64,000 bases of DNA, from contig MU394073.1 of NCBI GenBank assembly GCA_022578605.1, positions 186,001 through 250,000 on the forward strand. Reading direction: 5' to 3'. Shown in pieces: positions 2,479 to 14,867 of this stretch; position 1 is the first letter of the stretch, and each line of letters starts with the position of its first letter. The DNA comes from Camillea tinctor. Taxonomy: Eukaryota > Ascomycota > Sordariomycetes > Xylariales > Xylariaceae. A model generated the notes under the pieces. That model made no database searches. It saw only the letters and a list, made by a program, of their open reading frames with translations, and was not told the DNA's origin. The translations under genes and the position numbers were made by a program.

Positions 2479-4229
2479 AGTGCCGACCAATATCAGTTAT
2501 GTTGAAGGGTAGGAAAGAAAAAAGGAAAGGTGGGTGATGGAGAAGGTTAAAAGCGAAAGACTGTCCTGCCCAACAATAAGAAGAGTTGTAAGTTACTAAA
2601 AGTTTATTATGTCAAGGACAAGGTAAAAAAAAAAGGCATGTGCACTAGTATTTTTAGGAACTTCGGATCTTGACACTTTTCAAAAGTTCAATAAGCTCAG
2701 GCGCTAAAGCCACATCCCGCCACGTTTTATCTTTCCTTTTTTTCGGAGGGTCCCTCCCTTGTACGCATCTGCACCTAACCTAGTTGGCTGCTTAGTCATT
2801 AGGTATTATAGCCTGTCACCTGTTAGGATATGTGTGCCAAGACACCACCATATTTATGCAATCATTTTATGCAAGAGTCGCAAAACGGAACGTTGAATTT
2901 TCTAAACGGGACACGACCTATAATAGGAAGAGGAACATTAAACCGAAGAGATAAATATTTACAGCCATTTCTGCGTAGAGTCCCGCTATATCAATATGTT
3001 GGTTGTATCATAAATGATGACTAAGGGCCCCAAGGCCTTAGTCATCTCATATGGCCTTAGTCATCTCAAAAAACTATAAAAGGGTTGCCAATACCTTACC
3101 CTCAACTAGATAGTTCCCTCTTTAAAGACACTTAAATACACCAGTCTCCACCCTTTTGTTGTTTTTGTTATTATGTCTTTTCCTTTTATTTCATACGTAC
3201 GTACACATGCCTAAAGGCATACCTACACAATGTAAAGACATTCCTAGGCCAGAGAAGCCTGTGTAGTAAAAAGCTTTTAAGAATTCTCCTGACTAACAAC
3301 ACATAAATGATACATGATAGTATTCGAATGTCACCGTCGTGGGTTGTGAGGCCAAGAAAGAGGGGCCCATAGGTTATAGTGTATTTGTGTGTGTTCAGCA
3401 CTAATGCTTAACAGGCAAAGCTCATGCGGACGGGAGAAATGGCCGGTTCGTCATTAGGAAACCTTTAATTTATAACTCAACTGATTGTCTCCAAATTAGT
3501 TCATGACAATACACCGGACACTAAAGTACTTACTTATCTCATTAGCGTAGAAGGACTGCAAAGGGAAGGACAATTTTGACCTTGAAATAAAAAATCAAGA
3601 CGGAATATGTATGGTTTGCACCTTACGTCTCGGTCAAGAGCCACTTCGAGTATGACATATTCTTGAATCTGGACTATAGAGTTCTTCGTGTAGGCGAACT
3701 GGTGGAGGACGCTTTGGGGGGGGGGGTGTTTCACGATCAGGCCGTACCAGGGTGTGCCAAGAGTGACAGGGGTTGTGGACTCTCTCATTGGGTTCCGTCC
3801 GGTTGGTAACAATACTATGGAGAGAACCCCACCCCTTTTCCATAGCTATAAGACGATTAACCTTAGATGCATCACATATTCTCAATCCAATAACTAAGTT
3901 ATATCTCCCTCTTTAGGCAGTGCGGTTCTATAATCTGTTAGACACTCCTATATGATGGAAACATTAGCAGCGTAATTCCCATATTAGGCAAGGTTTGTTT
4001 TGTTGCCTTTGCTTTGCAGAGTACAACATCATCTAACAAAGTATACCTTGTGCCAAGGTTCCCGTGTATGTAGGCCAAGTCCTAGGTAGACTAATGGCTT
4101 GTAATAGAGAGCCTCAACTTCAACCTCATGTTACCTAGTTACGGTCTGGCGGAAGATTTTCTCTGTATAAATAACCTAGAAGCTAATATATTACTCCTCT
4201 AAATATCCTCCCACATCCTCCTGTCTTAT
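2479..4229. other. long AT-rich intergenic stretch at the start of the accessory island
   Basis: About 1.75 kb with only short, unrelated open frames and frequent stops in all frames. It contains a hairpin with an extra direct copy at 3016-3068 and a run of 11 G at 3716-3726. I see no gene here; it may be decayed repeat DNA. Confidence 0.55.
3016..3068. repeat. hairpin plus direct repeat
   Basis: GATGACTAAGGGCC at 3016-3029 is the reverse complement, apart from one extra G, of GGCCTTAGTCATC at 3034-3046. A second direct copy of GGCCTTAGTCATCTCA lies at 3053-3068. It may be the end of a small degenerate mobile element or a chance palindrome. Confidence 0.6.
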
Positions 4230-6403
4230 TTACAGTGTTATCTCCACAACTGGACCTTCATATTCCTTCTTGCCATATACAACATACCAAGCAATAGCAA
4301 ATAGCACTACAGCTCCAAAGGTCAACACGTTAAAGTTCATGGTCTCCGGCGTGATCTGTGCTGCCGGAGGCCAAAAAGACCAAAACCACAGCAATAGCAA
4401 ATACAAGCAAGCAAATACGTTATTAATCACTCCTAATACACCTGGAATGCGCCACGGTCCCCAATGCAGATTATCGGGACCCACCCTAGACACATGTGTG
4501 TCGTATGGCTTGATTCCTGGGCTCTGTATACGCCGCCATAGCAAAAGCGTGCAGCTAAGAAGATAAGACGAGTATAAGCCAGCGACACTCAAGTTGACAA
4601 TGTTACTGAAAGCAACGCTTGAGCCGAGGATAATTAGAGATAGGAGCACGGAGACGATCGTTGTAAATGCGATAGTGTAAACTGGAATGGAAGTACGGCG
4701 GTTGAGCTAGAGGTATCAGGTAAATCTTAGTAAATAGGGGTAGAATGACAATATAGAGACATGCCCCAAAAAGGCTGGTGGGTTGTAACTTATACCTTGA
4801 TAAATGTCCTCCAAATCGGTACTCCTCGATCTCTTGCGAACGACCAAAGCATTCTCGACGATGATGCTAGAACGCCTACGGTGCTGCATATACCTAGAAC
4901 TACGATAATTAAGCCCATCACCGCCGCTCCCGGAGTTGAGTTCGTTCCTGTTTGAAAAACAAACAAGAATGGGTAGCCTAGCGTTGCTTGAGACTCCAGC
5001 ACAGCCTCAAGATCTCCTAAACAAAAGAGATATGCGATCAACATGGCAAATCCGAGGATGCCATTGATACCAATACTGATGATTATGGCTCGAGGCACTA
5101 CCGTAGAAGCATTTTTTATCTCCTCGGCCATCTACCGAGTCTCTCTGGTTAAGGATTGCAGAAGGGTATGAGTAAGTTATATAGGACCACTTACATGGAC
5201 TGCAGAATCGGCACCTTATGTGAAGTTAGATAGACTGTGTGTGACACCAGGTTCCGGCGTTGAAAAATCTTACCGATGAGCGAAAATACTGAGGCCGGTA
5301 GGCCAACCATGAACGATAAGCCCTGGGTGGGCCATCCGCCTTCATTAACAAAGGTTGTAAAGAGAGAAGTGTCACCATGAGGAGCAAGGTAGACAAGAGG
5401 AATCAAGATGGCGAAGAATCCGAGGATGTGTAGTATAAGTATTAGGCCCTCAAAATGGGCAAGGGTCTTGCTCGCGACGGTGTTAATAAACACGGAGAAT
5501 CCCAATATCGCCCAGAGAAATAGCATAGCCTGCCAAGGTTGAGGGACGTAATCCGGCTTAAGCATGATGATGATGCTTTGTAGGAGGGTTCCTATGAGAT
5601 ATGCCGCAGAAGCCGTGACTGCTTGCCAGCCGGTCAAAGTCACCCAACCTGCGTCTTTGGTTAGTGGATATGTTGTTGGAGTCTATTGTTCCGAAATACA
5701 TGTTACCAGTTATGTAGCTTAAAAAGCGCCTCGATCGATCAGGGGCTAACATCGCAACCCAGCTATGGCCGCCGTCAATACTCATATCATTATCATGCCT
5801 TAACCTTGCAGTCAATCACCTACTGATATTGGCCACCTGCAGTGGGCGCCCTGTTCAATAGCTTTAGCAAGGAATACACTTATATACTTTCTTCCCATCC
5901 ATGACCTTGACTTACATTGAGGCTAATTCTGATAGCACAGCAAAGCTCGAGAGGGTGCCAATCCAAACGATGAGATAACCCCAAATAACACCAGCGGGAC
6001 CTCCGCTAATATTCGGGTCAGCTGGGAATACGTGCTTCAGGCGCGTAGCCTACATACTTCAATAAGCTCTGGGAAGACACGCTATGATAGAATCAGTTAG
6101 CATTGTGTTGGGTTAATGGATGGGGGTTGCTGGTGTTCAAACATCATAATCCCCTCCCATGTGATTAAGACAGTGCAGGAAAATCCCATAATCGACATAA
6201 ATCCAAAATTGCGCTGTTTAAAAGTTAGTCAGAATGGCGCGTTGTGTGTAAGTCTCGTCCCGTCACCCACGTACCTTCAATACGGGATTTTTCCCGAGTC
6301 GCATCAGGTCCCTCTCATCTCTGCTGTAGCCCGCGCTGTTCATCTCTTCCCCAGAAGCAGTCGCAGTCATCGAAGTAGTCTTAGTGCGTGATTGGAGCTC
6401 CAT
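4230..6403 (-). CDS. amino-acid / GABA-type permease (APC family)
   Basis: Ten exons reconstructed from frame and splice sites: 6275-6403, 6143-6213, 6058-6081, 5916-6005, 5824-5850, 5707-5762, 5274-5648, 5195-5214, 4796-5131, 4230-4706, giving 534 residues. Phases close at every junction. The spliced protein reads FGFMSIMGFSCTVLITWEG, then NGGPAG at 75-80, FAVLSELASMAPTAGGQYHW and GWVTLTGWQA. Later come MAEEIKNASTVVPRAI and RMLWSFARDRGVP, the hallmarks of the fungal GABA/choline-type permease branch of the APC superfamily, with about 12 membrane segments. The likely role is plasma-membrane uptake of an amino acid or GABA-like amine; the substrate cannot be read from sequence. Exons of 20, 24 and 27 nt are unusually small, and the second intron has a weak donor (GTTTGA), so that junction is the least certain. 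It is the left gene of the accessory island. Confidence 0.85.
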
Positions 6404-6848
6404 CTTCAAATCTTCAACAGTGCTCTCTCTTGGCCTAAAGAGTAGTGGGAAGTAGATTTCAGCGAGAAGGGGCAGTAAGTAGATGGTTCAGGGAGAGCCG
6501 GATCTAGCTTCTAAGCGGGAACGGTTATGTGCCATGATTTGCCATGTGTGAAATTTCGATAAGCAGTAAGCGCGGGAGTCTGGCAGCCAACACAGATATA
6601 GAGTCGCAAAATGATATGGATGTTATCCGGAAACAGCTTGCCGTCCTGGTAATATGCAGTCATGGTGGCCAACACCAATGATATCTATTCCTACGATGGG
6701 GGTTCATGTACCATACGGACGCGAGGTCGCCTGATGATTTTAGAAGTTCCATAAGAACAGGAACTTCTTATGATGGCTTAGGTTGGTTTTGAGTTAACTA
6801 CGTCAACATAAATCGCCCACCCTTTTTTTCTTTTTGCTTTTCCTTGCC
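6404..6848. promoter_or_regulatory. divergent promoter region, permease / rhodopsin-domain gene
   Basis: 445 bases between two divergent start codons, so both promoters must lie here. A pyrimidine-rich stretch (6820-6841) precedes the right-hand start. No specific regulator site could be recognised. Confidence 0.5.
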
Positions 6849-8090
6849 ATGGTCTCGGTTTCTTTTTTGATTGTGCCTAGACAACGACCGATAATTGACG
6901 ATAACCATGAAGCACCACTCGTACAAATCCTTACCTGGCTCATGCTCTCGTTTTCTATCTTAGCCGTTGCTGCCCATCTCATAACGAAGAGAGCCCTTGG
7001 AAGGAAGCTAGGATCATCCGATGCGATTATATTCGCAGCCCTGGTAATTTACCCAGCTTACTATGCCTGTATTCCATCTAGGGCCGCTGACGGAAGTGAA
7101 ATCCTAGGTCCTGGCCATTGGTCAAGCCGCGGCCCTGTTGAGCCCCGATGGTCAAGCCATTGGGAATACTCAAGAGCAAATCTCAGGGGAGGATTTCGAT
7201 CGAGCTCTCAAGGTGAGTGCTGGATCCTTAGGTATAACTATATATACTAAGAAAAACAGGTCCTTTACAGCGCTGAAATGCTTCATATCTTGACGCTCGT
7301 CGTTGCTAAGATATCCCTTCTCGTTGCTCTCTGTGCTATAACCCCTATTACAGAGCACCGGTTTGCTATATACTCCGCAAGTATAGTTATTGTGATATGG
7401 GGCATTACTTCGGTCTTCATAGTGGCTTTCCAATGTCCAGCACCACAGCAGTGGAATGTGTTTAATCAAGGCTGTACAGACATTGTAGGTCATCGACGAT
7501 GTGCTTTTGGAGACTGGCTGTGGCTTACCATGCTCAGAGAAGCTCTAGAACATATATTGCTGTCATGGATATCGTGACAGATTTCTGTTTAATGGTCGTC
7601 CCGTCATTTATCATTATGCCCGTTCGAATGTCGTGGAGGAAGCGCTTTACGATTTTGAGTGGATTTTGGTTTCGCATCACGTAGGTCATGTATACTCAAA
7701 CATCACCTCTCATATGCCCGTTAACCGACGTCTGGTCCAACTCTCTGTAGTACCATAGCCGTTGCAATCGTGCAGCTGATATACCTCCGTCGCCTTCGTT
7801 TCGATATCCACTTCCTCAATAACCTATGGAGACCTGTGGCCTGCCAACAGATTATACAAACACTCAGCATCATGAGCACGTGTATTCCATTCCTCAAGCC
7901 ATTCTGGGCAAGCCTTGAGTCAGGGTTCCTACGCGCGGACGATCTCAATCGGCGGACCGCCGGCGGTACGAGTTCATCTGCACTGAACTCTTCGGGCTGG
8001 ACATCGAGGTATATCAAGATTAAAAACTATCAAAACTGGGTGCCCTCCATAGAACTTCAGAGTTCAGCCACCCGACAAGAGCATAACTAA
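6849..8090 (+). CDS. fungal rhodopsin-domain integral membrane protein (7-TM)
   Basis: Five exons: 6849-7043, 7108-7212, 7260-7484, 7538-7680, 7751-8090; all introns 47-70 bp, GT-AG, phases consistent; 335 residues. The spliced protein shows repeated hydrophobic segments: ILTWLMLSFSILAVAAHLI, SDAIIFAALVLAIGQAAALL, MLHILTLVVAKISLLVAL, ASIVIVIWGITSVFIVAF. The motif FQCPAPQQWNVFNQGC and the later YIAVMDIVTDFCLMVVP match the large fungal 'rhodopsin domain-containing protein' family (PF20684), which is common beside secondary-metabolite and effector loci. Its function is unknown; it is not a retinal-binding opsin by any residue I can identify. ATG 6849 is the first ATG of the frame; an upstream TTG at 6834 was ignored. 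Confidence 0.8.
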
Positions 8091-8745: not shown

Positions 8746-9720
8746 TTAACCTGTAAGAAACGTCTCTACATGCTGCATGTGCTTCTCTCGTTGGTCGACG
8801 TGCGAAAAGTGAGCAGCATTGTCCAATGTAACCCATTTGACTTTCTTGATATGATCAAAGAAAGGTTGCATCGCCACATCCTGAGCCTCATCCTCGCGTC
8901 CGTTGATCAGCAGGGTTGGCACGGAAATGGCGTTAAGTAGCGGGATGCAGCTCCAATCGCGAAGCGAGCCCGAGATGTACAGCTCGCTAGGACCATACCT
9001 GCATCAATCGTAAGCTTGTTGAAACGACCCCTCAAGGAGCTACCCGGCTTACATGGTACCGTAAGTGGTTGCGTCTTTCGCAAACCAGTCAAGGGCGGCC
9101 TGGACCTCTTTCGATGGCCAAGGCCGGGCTAGACTCAGATGTCTCTTATAGAATACCTCGATGGCGGCTTCGTACTCTGCACTTTCGAAATCTTTCTCCT
9201 TTTCAGCACGATCTAGCTCGTCTTGGACTTCTTTAGGGAGTTGCTTCCTCAATGCCGTCATGCCCACCCTCCATGAATCCATGCTCGCCAGGCTGCTGGA
9301 AATAATAAGACGTCGAAGGTTTGCCGAGCTCGACGGCGAGGCGGCCCAATGGGCCGCCAGCATTCCACCCCAAGAGTGACCGTAGACGTCAATGGGTCGT
9401 TCCTTAAGCCCGAGGTGAGAGAGGAGATTGTCGAGCTCGTCCTTAAACAGGGTTACAGACCAGAATCCCTCGTCGCCTGCTTTCTCTGGCAGGTGCGTAG
9501 ACCGCCCATTTCCAATCTGATCGTAGAAAACCAGAGGAATTGATGACGAGAGATCCTCCAAGGGTAATAGATAGTCGTGGCATGCTCCAGGCCCACCATG
9601 TATCACGATCAAAGGCGTCTTTGATGTGTCCAGGTCACCGACGACCTTATACCACGTTTGACAAGGCTTTTCCAAGCCAGGAACCTCAAATTCCACGATA
9701 CCTTCTTTGGTGTTGGCCAT
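8746..9720 (-). CDS. proline-iminopeptidase-like alpha/beta hydrolase (S33)
   Basis: Two exons, 9053-9720 and 8746-8998, with a 54 bp intron between AT|GTAAGC and GCAG|G; 306 residues. The oxyanion-type HGGPG lies at 41-45, DQIGNGRS in the strand-4 region, and GHSWGG holds the nucleophile Ser116. LINGRED gives the acid Asp259 and NAAHFSH the base His286, so the catalytic triad is complete. This is the arrangement of prolyl aminopeptidase/tricorn F1-like hydrolases; members remove N-terminal proline or act on small amides and esters. No signal peptide, so probably cytosolic. It lies 320 bp from the UstYa gene on the same strand. A part in trimming a Pro-rich RiPP core is possible but only inferred. 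Confidence 0.88.
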
Positions 9721-10041: not shown

Positions 10042-11046
10042 CTACCCAGAGTATCTCTCGAATGGCCCCGGTCGGACTTTGTATCTATCCTTCGGCAATA
10101 GCCGTGATCTTGCCCATTCATCGATGGCATCCCAGTTAACGCAGATAGTATCTGACTTAGAGCGGAGCTCTTTATTTGGAAATGCTTTATGGTCTCCAAT
10201 CCAGTAGGCAGTGTAGAGAGCCAAATCGGCCTTGCACATCAAGCTGCGCCTAATAGTATCAACACAATGAGCTTTTTCTCTTGTTAGCTAGCATCCACAC
10301 GTAATGAAAGATATTGATAACCAACTCATATGTATAATATTATATTCGGCCTCTTCTGCTGTCGCGTTTGGAAAGTAGTATGTAGGGAAAATATTCCTCC
10401 GCAATGCGTCCTTCGCAGCTATGTCAGTGCTTGCTCATGTAAATTTCAGTGTATACCTAGGTACTAGAGGGGCATACAAGGCAGTGGAGTTCGTGGTGAA
10501 CCGAAAGGACGGATACATAGTCTCCATCGGTCAGTTGGACTATGTCGTTACTAAAAGTTGCATGGGCTTGCTCTAACTCTTGCTTCGTAACGCGAATATT
10601 GATAGCTATTGAAATATTAGCTTTAAAGGTTATGACTGGATTTATGACTGATTTATTACTCACGGTCGAGAAGATAGTCCCAAGCCGCATCAACGTCTTC
10701 CGGGAGACCTGCGTATTTTGAATCTTCGCCAAAATATAGGGGTTTACGTTCATACGAGACAACATGATGAGCCGGCGCTAGAACCAGTTAATTGAGAAGT
10801 CATTTTTATCGTAAAGGTTAAAATAGATAGCTCACAGTACGGTTGGGGCACGTCTTTCCTACTCCATACGATAATTATAGGCAACGATACCAGCAAATAT
10901 CCAAGACACAAGATATTCAGTACCAAGCTTCGTACTCTTTGAATTCGCGACAATTTACCGCTGCTGGTTGAAAGAGGCTTCTCTTGTATCGGCTCATAAA
11001 TTTCGGACTTGTCAAGGAGGCCGGCTTGTTCGAAATTCTCCTCCAT
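10042..11046 (-). CDS. UstYa-family (DUF3328) oxidase
   Basis: Five exons: 10836-11046, 10664-10777, 10465-10605, 10326-10418, 10042-10271; 262 residues. One membrane segment at about residues 38-61 follows a short cytosolic tail, as in UstYa proteins. The family's two HxxHC motifs are both intact: H146-E-L-H149-C150 and H185-M-T-H188-C189; the second is assembled across an intron with donor GTTGGT. YYFPN and VDTIRRSLMCKAD are also family-like. UstYa-type proteins oxidise and cross-link side chains of ribosomal peptides in fungal dikaritin pathways (ustiloxin, phomopsin, asperipin-2a). It is transcribed away from the repeat-bearing precursor with 757 bp between starts, suggesting shared regulation. 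The exon 3/4 border is uncertain: the GTACCT donor used here keeps frame but leaves a longer HCL-to-YYFPN spacing than I would expect. Confidence 0.87.
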
Positions 11047-11803
11047 ATTCTCCTATTGTCAAGCTTGAAAGTCGACTTAGAATGGGGATAGTATTCTTCC
11101 CCTAAAATGGTTTAGAGGAGTGAAATGAAAATACTACGAATGCTTGACTCTTCTCGACCGTATGAAATCGGCGATCGAGTCATAAAGAACGAAGGTGGTT
11201 GAGGCAACTAGATAGTATAGCCATGAATCAGGGCTTATCCTATTCATCTATGGGGTTATAGTATTAGTACATACTTTCTAGACCATCGATAAGAGTCCTT
11301 ATGCGCTTAGCTACATGCTAGCTGCGGGTAGGTGGTCTAGGTGAATGAACTGCCGCTGGCCCGCCATTGACATCGAAATATGAATCTTGCGGCACAGCAG
11401 GACGCTTGTGAATGGTTATATATTAGAAGTTGGTGGTTATATGATTATTGATTAAGGCCGATTCTTACAGAATGACCTATCATTTGATCGTAGCGTACAT
11501 CGGTCCTAAGATGCAATGCATAGAGATACATTGATGTAACTCCCTATGTTTACACAACAGTGGCGGTGAGGTGAGAGAAATTAGATACATAGATTATAAC
11601 GAGTAAGTGGTATACATCCAGTCTTCCATATTCCCACAATTTGATACTGGTATCTCATAACTATCTCCATCTTCGAGTAACGACACCATAGGCATATCCA
11701 AACATAAATAGTGACCTGTTCGCTCACCAAAGGACATAGTATTGAGAAACTTCATTGAGAACAAGACCTTTCTAGCCAATTTCAAAATTGCCTACTTCTC
11801 AAC
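11047..11803. promoter_or_regulatory. divergent promoter region between UstYa gene and RiPP precursor
   Basis: 757 bases between two divergent starts. AT-rich, without a clear TATA box. A 63-codon antisense frame (11594-11785) has no recognisable features and I do not call it. A cluster-specific regulator site may be here, but no repeated palindrome was obvious by eye. Confidence 0.5.
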
Positions 11804-12128
11804 ATGCGGTTCCAGTTTCTGATTTTAACGTCTTTCGTCCTTGGCGCTATCTCAGCTCCAATAGGTAAGTGCTCACGACGCAGTGTGAGGGCACCTTTCT
11901 GACCAATATCTTATAGACGATAAAGCTTCCATGGCTCTGAAGTCTGAGGCACGTTTGCTTGCTAGGGATGTTGAGGGTATCTTCGAAGAGAAGACTAAGC
12001 GATCCAGTCCTGTGCCTCCGCTTTGGGATGGGGGAGTCGAGTTCGAAGGGAAGAAGATTCAGCGGTCTAGTCCTGTACCCCCACTCTGGGACGGAGGAGT
12101 TGAATTTGAAGAGGAGAAGACTCAGTAG
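11804..12128 (+). CDS. secreted repeat precursor peptide, candidate dikaritin-type RiPP precursor
   Basis: Two exons, 11804-11864 and 11917-12128, with a 52 bp intron (GTAAGT...TTATAG); 90 residues. Residues 1-18 are a clear signal peptide ending AISA. A short leader follows, then two units of 21 residues: a 5-residue spacer (EEKTK, GKKIQ) plus the identical 16-mer RSSPVPPLWDGGVEFE at 49-64 and 70-85. A Kex2-type Lys-Arg site lies at 48-49; the second unit has Gln-Arg (69-70) preceded by Lys-Lys. Signal peptide, Kex2 processing and repeated core beside a UstYa oxidase is the architecture of dikaritin precursors. The core contains Trp and Phe but no Tyr. The spacer EEKTQ recurs just before the stop, which sits where the third unit's Arg codon would be. 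A small repeated secreted protein of other function is the alternative. Confidence 0.8.
11985..12110 (+). repeat. two in-frame 63-bp core-peptide repeats
   Basis: Units at 11985-12047 and 12048-12110, each spacer (15 bp) plus core (48 bp). The 48-bp cores at 12000-12047 and 12063-12110 differ at 11 positions by direct comparison, all in third codon positions and all synonymous, so the encoded 16 residues are identical. Confidence 0.92.
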
Positions 12129-12173
12129 TCCAGCCCTATAAGCCCTGTCTAAGATGGGATGTTGGTTATACTG
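12111..12173 (+). pseudogene. decayed third core repeat, cut by the stop codon
   Basis: The spacer EEKTQ (12111-12125) is followed at 12126 by TAG, exactly 63 bp after the Arg codon of repeat 2 (12063) and therefore in its register. Downstream codons keep TCC, CCT, GAT and GGG at matching positions, but the Trp codon position reads TAA and Val reads ATA. By eye 19-20 of the first 33 bases match either intact repeat. Several differences are G to A or C to T. The unit is not translated in the present frame. Confidence 0.65.
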
Positions 12174-12898
12174 GACGCGGGATATAAGATGCCTCACGGA
12201 ATATAGTGATAGACATCAATCCTGGAGAATACGTTGCAGTTTCGTTGTGTCACTGCTGTGGGACAACTAGAACATAATATGCATGATTAAAAAGTAGTAT
12301 TGTAGCTCCTACCTGAAGGCTTGGTCGTGAGGTCAGCACCCTCGATCCTTCAACCTATGGCGATAATGTAATTATTTACTTGGGGTTACTGCAGATGTCA
12401 TCACGTCTTACAAACATCCCGCACTAGAACTCTGGGGTTGTAAAGCACACGCCCAATAAATGGGTATCTTATAGTCGGATAAATAGCCGCTGATGCTACC
12501 TTATGGCAGAAGAAGTACCATGCAGCTGGATTGCAGAATGGAGACCAAAAAGCTGTAAGCTCACCTTTCGACTTATGTAGTGATTCGGTGTTAATATAAT
12601 TCGAGCTACCTACCTGATTTGATATAGGTTAGGAGCAACGGTTCGGGTCTCTTCAGGACCTACCAATAACTATGGACTCTAGAGATAGGGGTGTATCCCC
12701 GTGCGATATGCGACACCAATGGGAGAACACTCTCGATTTTCTGATGTCCCTCCAACATTCGTCTATACACTATTAGAAAGCTGTATTGTATACCAAGGAC
12801 AAAGGGGCGTATCTCTCAAATTTCTATTATATTTCAGAATTCATGAAAAGAACTCATCCAATAGGTTTTTTTTTTTTTTCAGATTGCCGTAAGCTATC
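12174..12898. other. intergenic between precursor and peptide transporter
   Basis: About 725 bases without a gene. It must hold the precursor's 3' end and the transporter promoter. A run of T ending in CAG at 12867-12882, 17 bases before the transporter ATG, resembles a 3' splice site, so a 5'-UTR intron is possible. Confidence 0.5.
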
Positions 12899-14867
12899 AT
12901 GGGTAACCAACGACTCCATGAACCCTCTTCAGGGGAGAGATTCTTCCAGAGAGATGCTACAATCGAGGAGATCCAAACGCTCATCCACGAAAATGAGCGG
13001 GTCCCAGCCACAGCATGGCTCCTAGCCTTCACAGGAGCGGCATCACAATTCGCACGATTCGGCATTACTGTGACATGGCGTTAGTATCCACTACTCTACC
13101 ATGTTCGGGCTTCTAACTTGACTCAGAGAATTATCTCCAGAACCCGCAAGGAAACCCTCTACTCCCGGGTGCCTTGGGCCTAGGGCAGGCTAAAGCTACA
13201 ATCATTCAGAATGCGTTTCTGTTCTTTCAGTACTTGACTCCTCTACCGTTCGCCTTGATGTCAGACGTCTGGATCGGTCGCTACAAGACAATGCTCATCT
13301 GCCTTGGGTAGGTGACCGAAAATTGCTTTCGCGATAAACCTGGAAGTTGGTAGCTAATATTTTCTAGACTCTTAGTCACGGGATACGTCGTGTTGGTAGT
13401 TACATCCATCCCGAGTGCTCTGAACCACGGAGCTGGAATCCCGGGTATTGCCATCACCATGGTATTGATAGGCCTAGGGCAAGGAGGCCTATCAGCAGTC
13501 ATGTACCCATTCATAGGTACAGTTTATAACTACTATTGTGGAAGGTTTTAGGGCTAAATGATATACAGCTGACCAGATTCCTATCACGAAACCTCAAGTG
13601 AAGCGAAACAAGAAAGGAGAACTTATAGTAACAGATCGAAAACTGACGATTCAATACGCCTTCAACGGATATTACTGGTAAGGCTAGCACATATCTTCTG
13701 CCGTTTTTTCTTAACAGAAATAGTATAAAAAGCTAAAATTCCCAGGATGGTTAATATCGCAGCTCTCTCCTCGATCCCTACCACTTTGATGGAGAAGCAC
13801 ATCGGCTTTTGGCCGACGTACTTGCTACCGACATGCGTTCTTGTCATCTTTATCATTCCCGTGATCCTTTGGAATAGGCAACTCGGTATCTAGCATTTGG
13901 ACTTTAAATGAAAGCGGCTACTAATAGTTTCATAGTCAAGCTGTCTCCGGAAGGCAATGTTCTCCCACACGCTGGTCATGTGCTCCTAATTGCCTGGCGC
14001 TCCCGGTTTCGACTATCTGCCGCAGATCCAAAATATCAGGAATCGCATTATGGTCGCTCTGTACCTTGGAGCGCTTCATTTGTAGACGAAATAAGACGTA
14101 GCCTGAAGGGGTGCCGTGTCATCGCCTATTTTGTAGTTTTCTGGCTTTGCTATAATCAAACTACCAACAACATTATCTCCCAGGCAGGCCAAATGACCCA
14201 ACAAGGAATATCTAATGATACTATCCAGGCTTTGAACCCAATCGCATGTATTATTGCAGGTCCTCTTATCCAAAATGTCGTTTTTCCTTTCCTTCGTCGC
14301 CACCGAGTCTCTTTCGGACCTATTCGGCGCATGACGGTTGCGTTTCTATTCATATCAGCGGGCATAGCCTATGCAGCAGGACTTCAGCAACTTATATATT
14401 CCAGGGGCCCTTGTTACACCAATCCTCTAGAATGTCCAGCAGCTGTACAACAAAATACAGGCGCTCGGGTACCCAACGACTTGAGCGTGTGGCTTCAAAC
14501 GCCGTTGCATTTCTTACTTGCTATCGGCGAGATTTTAGGTCTCGTTTCTCTAAACGAATACGCATATTCTGAAGCCCCAACCAATATGAAAGCAGTGGTT
14601 CAAGCACTTCTGGAAATCGCTGCTGCCGTAGCAGCAGCTCTTGGGATCGCACTGGGTCCAGTGTCTAGAGATCCCTGGTTAGTGATCATGTATGCTAGCT
14701 TGGCGGGTGCGTGTGCTTTTTCTGCAGTTACTTTTCTGGCAATATTCAGGAGACACGATGCTATTTATGAGAATCGAGACGTGGAGGACGCGAGAGACGA
14801 CAAGGGTCACAGTGAAGCCGTAAAACAGGGTGACACTCAAACGGAGCAGAGCACGACGCCTGCATGA
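12899..14867 (+). CDS. POT/PTR2-type proton-dependent oligopeptide transporter
   Basis: Six exons: 12899-13079, 13127-13307, 13368-13516, 13569-13677, 13746-13885, 13936-14867; 563 residues, all phases consistent. Recognisable POT features are FQYLTPLPFALMSDVWIGRYKTM, GLGQGGLSAVMYPFIADQ, RKLTIQYAFNGYYWMVNIAALSS and NEYAYSEAPTNMKAVVQAL. About 12 membrane segments are expected, in the plasma or vacuolar membrane. The first helix reads AASQFARFG (47-55) where PTR2 proteins usually carry the ExxER proton-coupling motif; the Glu and Arg appear replaced by Ser and Gln. The gene starts 770 bp after the precursor on the same strand and may export or take up the peptide product; this is inference. It is the right gene of the accessory island. 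Confidence 0.85.

What the first reader, a model, noticed from the sequence alone, without database searches (positions are those of the whole stretch)
10042..14867. Compact dikaritin-type RiPP cluster: UstYa oxidase, repeated-core precursor, peptide transporter
Sequence shows a secreted 90-residue precursor with two identical 16-residue repeats and a Kex2 site. Next to it, divergently, lies a UstYa-family protein with both HxxHC motifs intact; on the other side is a POT-type peptide transporter. Established: signal peptide + Kex2-spaced repeats + UstYa homologue defines fungal dikaritin RiPPs, and asperipin-2a needs only one UstYa homologue. Inference: this locus makes a modified peptide I cannot match to a known product.
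Basis: partly seen in the sequence, partly recalled or inferred. Interest (0 to 1): 0.93.

Follow-up and report, generated by a model that had tools for sequence, protein, structure and literature searches.

The report
Fungal UstYa peptide cluster, SPxPP precursor
A fungus carries a small gene set that very probably makes an oxidised secreted peptide; the peptide belongs to a family shared by distant fungi and lacks the tyrosine that this type of enzyme usually works on.

Summary
The window is very probably Camillea tinctor: its precursor and UstYa proteins equal GenBank 'hypothetical proteins' of that fungus. The 90-aa precursor has two identical 15-residue cores that differ at 10 DNA sites, all synonymous. 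The divergent UstYa gene is intact with both HxxHC motifs.

The precursor is not an orphan: ten homologues were found, in Xylariales, Melanomma, Botrytis and two unnamed records. None of 26 matched cores ([S/T]P-x-PP[L/I]-x-[D/N]-GG in nearly all) has Tyr; the Trp position is Val or Met in two species and one unnamed record. The Xylaria longipes core fragments have no aromatic residue or histidine.

So this is very probably a UstYa RiPP locus, dikaritin-like in logic, but not of the Tyr-ether type if these cores are the substrate. Modification and product are unknown. New variant of a known kind.

The parts
8746..9720 (-). proline-iminopeptidase-family alpha/beta hydrolase, 306 aa, intron 8999-9052; possible trimming peptidase, membership in the cluster not shown
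   Evidence: model; TIGR01250 219 bits against a cut-off of 167.65; best PDB match proline iminopeptidase 3wmr
10042..11046 (-). UstYa (DUF3328) oxidase, 255 aa; introns 10835-10778, 10663-10606, 10477-10411, 10325-10272
   Evidence: PF11807 155.9 bits; 100% identical to F4810DRAFT_669587
10481..10495 (-). first HxxHC motif (HELHC)
10264..10332 (-). second HxxHC motif (HMTHC), split by intron 10325-10272
11047..11803 (.). 757-bp intergenic stretch between the divergent UstYa and precursor genes, possible shared promoter (inference)
11804..12128 (+). precursor gene, 90 aa, intron 11865-11916; signal-peptide-like start, leader, two cores
   Evidence: 100% identical to F4810DRAFT_669589
11997..12002 (+). 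Kex2-type KR site directly before core 1
12003..12047 (+). core 1, SSPVPPLWDGGVEFE
12051..12056 (+). KK pair between the cores, three residues (IQR) before core 2
12066..12110 (+). core 2, same residues, 10 synonymous DNA differences; preceded by QR, not KR
12129..12158 (+). relic of a third repeat beyond the stop codon (19 of 30 bases match either core, in register); not coding
   Evidence: 1 of 20000 composition shuffles reaches 19/30; besides the two cores, 3 of 127940 window positions (both strands) reach 19/30, this one included
12899..14867 (+). POT/PTR2-family transporter, 563 aa, five introns; membership in the cluster inferred from position
   Evidence: (PF00854 167.6 bits)

Best explanation
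This is a UstYa-type fungal RiPP locus. The precursor enters the secretory pathway (inferred from its N-terminus), Kex2 cuts after KR, and the membrane-anchored UstYa protein, by analogy a copper enzyme, oxidises the conserved [S/T]P-x-PP[L/I]-x-[D/N]-GG block near the start of each fragment. No Tyr, and in one relative no aromatic residue at all, is available. The reaction is therefore most likely hydroxylation, desaturation or a cross-link on the conserved Pro, Leu/Ile, Ser/Thr or Asp residues, not the Tyr-ether closure of ustiloxin, phomopsin and asperipin. The neighbouring proline-iminopeptidase-type enzyme and POT transporter may trim and move the product. Shown here: genes, motifs, core conservation, shared contigs across classes. 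Inferred: catalysis, site of modification, secretion, roles of transporter and peptidase.
For: Intact UstYa with both HxxHC motifs and an N-terminal hydrophobic helix. Core copies diverged at DNA level only synonymously over 15 codons. Eleven precursors with one core pattern, nine from named species of Sordariomycetes, Dothideomycetes and Leotiomycetes (classes of Camillea, Whalleya, Melanomma, Botrytis; Xylaria and Monosporascus recalled). The group is close-knit (18 homologues at 50-71% to Camillea) while the genome's own other UstYa copies in L011-L024 reach only 24-34% over matches of 67 residues or more. DUF3328 protein CctR is a copper-dependent C(sp3)-H hydroxylase (PMC12435403, abstract and part 1 of section 3); UstYa homologues of phomopsin also desaturate residues (PMC10512285, passages).
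Against: No expression, mass or enzyme data. Core 2 lacks a directly preceding KR; Kex2 might cut at KK and leave IQR on it, or release one tandem fragment. Twelve of the 18 other UstYa group members had no precursor found, and 4 of 11 precursors had no UstYa found. Contig sharing is inferred from equal species and contig length, not from measured distance. One linked UstYa model (X. grammica, P0021) lacks both motifs as annotated. The precursor records P0028 and P0031 have no clear signal-like start. The UstYa structure model is poor (mean pLDDT 54.9), so the copper site was not examined. Transporter and peptidase were not tested for conservation in relatives.
Confidence: 0.72

Rival explanations
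1. A dikaritin whose cyclisation uses the Trp (or the later Phe) of the core as the aromatic partner in Camillea, with relatives that lost Trp using another residue.
For: Trp stands at core position 7 in 16 of 26 copies, both Camillea copies included. Victorin is cyclised through Phe, not Tyr (PMC9233826, passages). Most core fragments carry Phe.
Against: The Trp position is V, M, R, S or P in the other 10 copies; both X. longipes fragments have no F, W, Y or H although its UstYa keeps both motifs.
Confidence: 0.25
2. A secreted linear peptide signal (pheromone-like KEP); the UstYa gene is an unrelated neighbour.
For: Signal-like N-terminus, Kex2 site, few repeats, strong residue conservation.
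Against: Contig sharing with one UstYa group for 7 of 11 precursors, across three classes. Umemura 2020 reports that almost all KEPs annotated as pheromones, with three exceptions, lack DUF3328 neighbours (PMC7329392, abstract).
Confidence: 0.1
3. A decaying or silent locus: third repeat lost, second Kex2 site weakened, no product made.
For: Third-repeat relic with stop codons; QR instead of KR before core 2.
Against: Both cores keep identical residues against 10 synonymous changes; UstYa and transporter reading frames intact. Last repeats also look degenerate in X. curta and Monosporascus, so terminal decay may be normal for the family.
Confidence: 0.12

Closest known systems
Dikaritins (ustiloxin, phomopsin, asperipin-2a, victorin)
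   Same: Repeat precursor with Kex2-type site next to a UstYa/DUF3328 gene with two HxxHC motifs; one UstYa as in asperipin-2a (PMC7329392 section 7)
   Different: No Tyr in any of 26 matched cores and no aromatic residue common to all; no tyrosinase match in the window (0 of 21 genome matches); only two cores in Camillea; the conserved block begins one residue after the Kex2-type site
Kex2-processed repeat proteins (KEPs)
   Same: N-terminal signal-like stretch, tandem cores, Kex2-type site
   Different: Two repeats; published surveys asked for at least three (PMC7329392 section 13; PMC6339444 passages)
Cyclochlorotine hydroxylase CctR (DUF3328)
   Same: Same family and HxxHC pair; shows that the family can oxidise aliphatic C-H bonds (PMC12435403)
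   Different: CctR acts on a non-ribosomal cyclic peptide
Other UstYa loci of the same genome
   Same: In 5 of 14 fetched stretches around other UstYa matches a KEP-like repeat ORF was found (L011, L013, L015, L019, L022)
   Different: Those repeats carry Tyr or Trp (GWLYIK, YSIGKR, DYAIR, AIWLWK, SPWSTKR); the UstYa proteins there are only distantly related

Membership tests
Dikaritin RiPP cluster | UstYa/DUF3328 protein with two HxxHC motifs | tested here: met
   PF11807 155.9 bits, cut-off 25; HELHC and HMTHC. Definition as told in PMC12048977 passages
Dikaritin RiPP cluster | Precursor with repeated cores | tested here: met
   Two identical 15-residue cores, 63-bp period
Dikaritin RiPP cluster | Signal peptide on the precursor | tested here: inconclusive
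   Hydrophobic start MRFQFLILTSFVLGAISA by eye; no predictor available
Dikaritin RiPP cluster | Kex2 sites between cores | tested here: inconclusive
   KR before core 1; KK then IQR before core 2. In the family 21 of 26 cores follow KR or RR after one residue; the rest follow QR, ER, DR (twice) or none (my count from the list)
Dikaritin RiPP cluster | Tyrosinase in the cluster (older five-gene definition, PMC12048977 passages) | tested here: not met
   0 of 21 PF00264 matches lie in the window
Dikaritin RiPP cluster | Methyltransferase in the cluster (older definition) | not tested
   No genome search made for it; none among the 10 proteins and 9, which do not cover the whole window
Dikaritin RiPP cluster | Transporter or peptidase gene | tested here: met
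   PTR2 and proline-iminopeptidase-family hydrolase adjacent; that they belong to the pathway is inferred
Tyr-ether dikaritins (ustiloxin, phomopsin, asperipin type) | Tyr in the core as ether donor | tested here: not met
   0 of 26 cores
Dikaritin product | Oxidatively cyclised peptide | not testable with these tools
   Needs mass spectrometry and NMR
KEP as surveyed in PMC7329392 | At least 3 tandem repeats between Kex2 sites | tested here: not met
   Two repeats in Camillea; criterion
POT/PTR2 transporter | PF00854 domain | tested here: met
   167.6 bits, cut-off 27

The most novel reading that the evidence does not exclude
The SPxPP family is a separate UstYa RiPP subclass in which the copper enzyme modifies a proline-rich peptide without any aromatic partner, by oxidising or cross-linking the conserved Ser/Thr, Pro, Leu/Ile or Asp. 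It is spread over three ascomycete classes, and low-copy members such as the Camillea precursor fall below the repeat threshold of published surveys.
Probability: 0.35. Interest if true: 0.75.

Novelty: new variant of a known kind. Interest (0 to 1): 0.56.

Why it matters
Few ascomycete UstYa RiPPs have known products: a 2022 review counts five (PMC10512285, passages). Another review describes all five as closed through Tyr or Phe, for epichloecyclins as likely (PMC9233826, passages). A conserved precursor family with a matching UstYa group and, in one species, no aromatic residue in the cores lets one ask directly what UstYa enzymes can do without an aromatic substrate. It also shows a blind spot: a precursor with two cores fails the three-repeat filters of both KEP surveys looked at here.

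Tried and rejected
Tried without result. Searches of viral contigs and genome contigs for UstYa relatives: 27 and 66 pattern hits, none confirmed. PDB sequence search for UstYa: 0 matches. Structure model too weak for a fold search (mean pLDDT 54.9); no fold search was run. UstYa trees too unresolved to test horizontal transfer: 12 of 17 and 9 of 15 inner branches open. The second tree left out P0021 (close to P0009) and P0024 (long branch). Cyclobiscognioxin A, a cyclic pentapeptide reported from Biscogniauxia papillata (Graphostromataceae), is cyclo-(Phe-Leu-Leu-Leu-Ile) and does not match the core (PMC12783183, passages).

Considered and set aside: resemblance of SPxPP to plant Hyp-rich hormone motifs or to Bowman-Birk loops. 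Both are recalled, untested, and weakened by the free third position.

Rows dropped and limits of counts: P0032 (E 0.66, one PPLWDGG stretch in a longer, unrelated-looking protein) was left out of all precursor counts. The core count of 26 used one regular expression that itself asks for P at position 2, P or S at 4 and 5, L, I or V at 6 and D, N or R at 8, so conservation there is partly built in; the free alignment of the 11 precursors also lists S51, P52, P55 and P73, P75, P76, D79, G81 as invariant. The expression misses two degenerate copies, in P0025 (first) and P0004 (last). The P450 search showed no match in the window, but only 92 of 283 candidates were scored, so it is no proof of absence.
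Full report
What is there. The window is contig C23, 186001-250000, of a 44.7-Mb genome; two of its proteins are identical to Camillea tinctor GenBank entries, a xylarialean ascomycete. Exon models give a 255-aa UstYa on the minus strand (11046..10042), a 90-aa precursor on the plus strand (11804..12128) and a 563-aa POT transporter (12899..14867). UstYa and precursor models match the GenBank proteins at 100% over full length, which checks their intron calls; the transporter and hydrolase models were not checked that way. To the right lies an RNA 3'-terminal phosphate cyclase-family gene.

The precursor. It starts with a hydrophobic, signal-like stretch (by eye), then a leader, then KR, then two copies of SSPVPPLWDGGVEFE at a 63-bp period. 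The copies differ at 10 nucleotides, all synonymous, in 15 codons (p 6e-7 unweighted, 2e-6 with kappa 4; the stretch was chosen because it is identical). Over the whole 21-codon repeat it is 10 synonymous and 5 non-synonymous. This argues for selection on the peptide. Core 2 is preceded by QR, with a KK just upstream (KK-IQR), so how it is released is unclear. Past the stop codon, in register, 19 of 30 bases match either core (1 of 20000 shuffles): a lost third repeat. The degenerate PPLWDGG DNA pattern is found at these two places only in the genome, and a protein search at E up to 1 finds no second gene.

Relatives. A single-sequence search gave the Camillea entry and 3 homologues; the profile of these four gave 12 rows, 11 of them kept: Camillea, Whalleya, Xylaria curta, X. 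grammica, X. digitata, X. longipes, Monosporascus, Melanomma, Botrytis byssoidea and two records without an organism name (P0028, P0031), which also lack a clear signal-like start. That search scored only the 7983 candidates sharing most words. UstYa has 18 homologues at 50-71% identity and then a gap to one at 33%. Matching species and contig length, precursor and UstYa share a contig in Camillea (591403), Whalleya (162368), Melanomma (77685), X. grammica (448630), X. digitata (392469), X. longipes (104947) and Botrytis (2174849): 7 of 11 precursors. Botrytis has consecutive locus tags. For X. curta, Monosporascus and the two unnamed records no UstYa partner was found; 12 of the 18 other UstYa proteins had no precursor found. 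Searches give three classes: Sordariomycetes, Dothideomycetes, Leotiomycetes. Both HxxHC motifs are exact in 15 of 19 UstYa rows (my reading); P0016, P0017, P0021 and P0023 have gaps or an insertion there that look like gene-model errors (inference). P0021 is the X. grammica partner. Trees could not resolve whether the locus moved between classes.

The core pattern. Of 26 copies matched by one expression: position 1 S 24, T 2; position 2 P 26; position 3 free (8 residue types); positions 4 and 5 P 25 each; position 6 L 19, I 7; position 7 W 16, V 6, four others once each; position 8 D 24, N 2; then mostly GG. The expression itself asks for some of these residues (positions 2, 4, 5, 6, 8), so their counts are partly built in; the free alignment supports S-P and P-P as conserved. 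No copy has Tyr. Cut at KR or RR, both X. longipes core fragments hold no F, W, Y or H, while its UstYa keeps both motifs. Thus no aromatic side chain is shared by all cores. What is kept is a hydroxyl residue, prolines, Leu/Ile and Asp/Asn. The conserved block begins one residue after the Kex2-type site. In 5 of 14 stretches around the genome's other UstYa matches a KEP-like ORF was found; in four of these five the Tyr or Trp block lies shortly before the basic site, so the layout differs.

How it most likely works. The dikaritin logic is described in reviews (PMC9233826, PMC10512285 and PMC12048977, passages): the precursor enters the secretory pathway, Kex2 cuts, UstYa oxidises. [quoted passage not shown] The Camillea UstYa has the same motif pair and an N-terminal helix (residues 32-64, confident at about 41-60), though the model as a whole is poor. 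I therefore infer hydroxylation, desaturation or a cross-link on the conserved aliphatic part. Roles of the transporter and iminopeptidase are guesses from position. The transporter's three printed alignments to solved POT chains begin at residue 82 or later.

Against known kinds. Umemura 2020 found that 65.6% of repeats of DUF3328-linked KEPs contain Tyr, so Tyr-free ones are known as sequences (PMC7329392 section 7). That survey asked for at least three repeats (section 13), as did the 2019 secretome survey (PMC6339444, passages), so a two-core precursor would fail both. Supplementary tables were not readable, so multi-core relatives may already be listed there. A survey of Hypoxylaceae and Xylaria hypoxylon sought RiPPs by similarity to known precursors (PMC8403587, passages). 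No held paper contains PVPPLWD, PLWDGG or PPLWDG. Among the papers listed I saw no title or start of abstract that describes this locus; these lists are capped and subscription papers are largely outside that library.

Verdict. 'Dikaritin' holds in the broad, enzyme-based sense; the Tyr-ether type is not met. The finding is a conserved, Tyr-free SPxPP family with its own UstYa group, a new variant of a known kind.

Noticed in passing
L011 (G000:C5:985001-994900), 1900-2445 minus, and C5 990-999 kb: Repeat ORF with ...AAATRSGWLYIK(E)R units beside several UstYa matches, about five separate genes by position: a multi-UstYa RiPP cluster candidate.
   Followed up: partly
L015 (G000:C16:431500-441400), 1966-2838 minus: ORF with many DYAIRSEN-type units after a signal-like start, next to a UstYa gene; YAI recalls the ustiloxin core (recalled).
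   Followed up: no
L013 (C26) 3019-3243 minus; L019 (C48) 6150-6689 plus: Repeat ORFs with DYSTLVYSIGKR and DAIWLWKEKR units near UstYa genes.
   Followed up: no
L022 (C21:435500-445400) 6011-6235 plus: ORF with a signal-like start and EASPWSTKR-type short Trp repeats, perhaps pheromone-like.
   Followed up: no
window 6897-8090, plus: Reading frames interrupted by apparent introns between an amino-acid permease gene (4230-5682, minus) and the hydrolase; no Pfam match for the two pieces scanned.
   Followed up: partly
window about 13010-13070 (transporter first helix): The POT ExxER signature (recalled) is not evident; the helix reads AASQFARFG, and the three PDB alignments shown start after it.
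   Followed up: no
P0002 and P0004 C-termini: Last repeats are degenerate in X. curta and Monosporascus too, suggesting loss of terminal repeats in this family.
   Followed up: no
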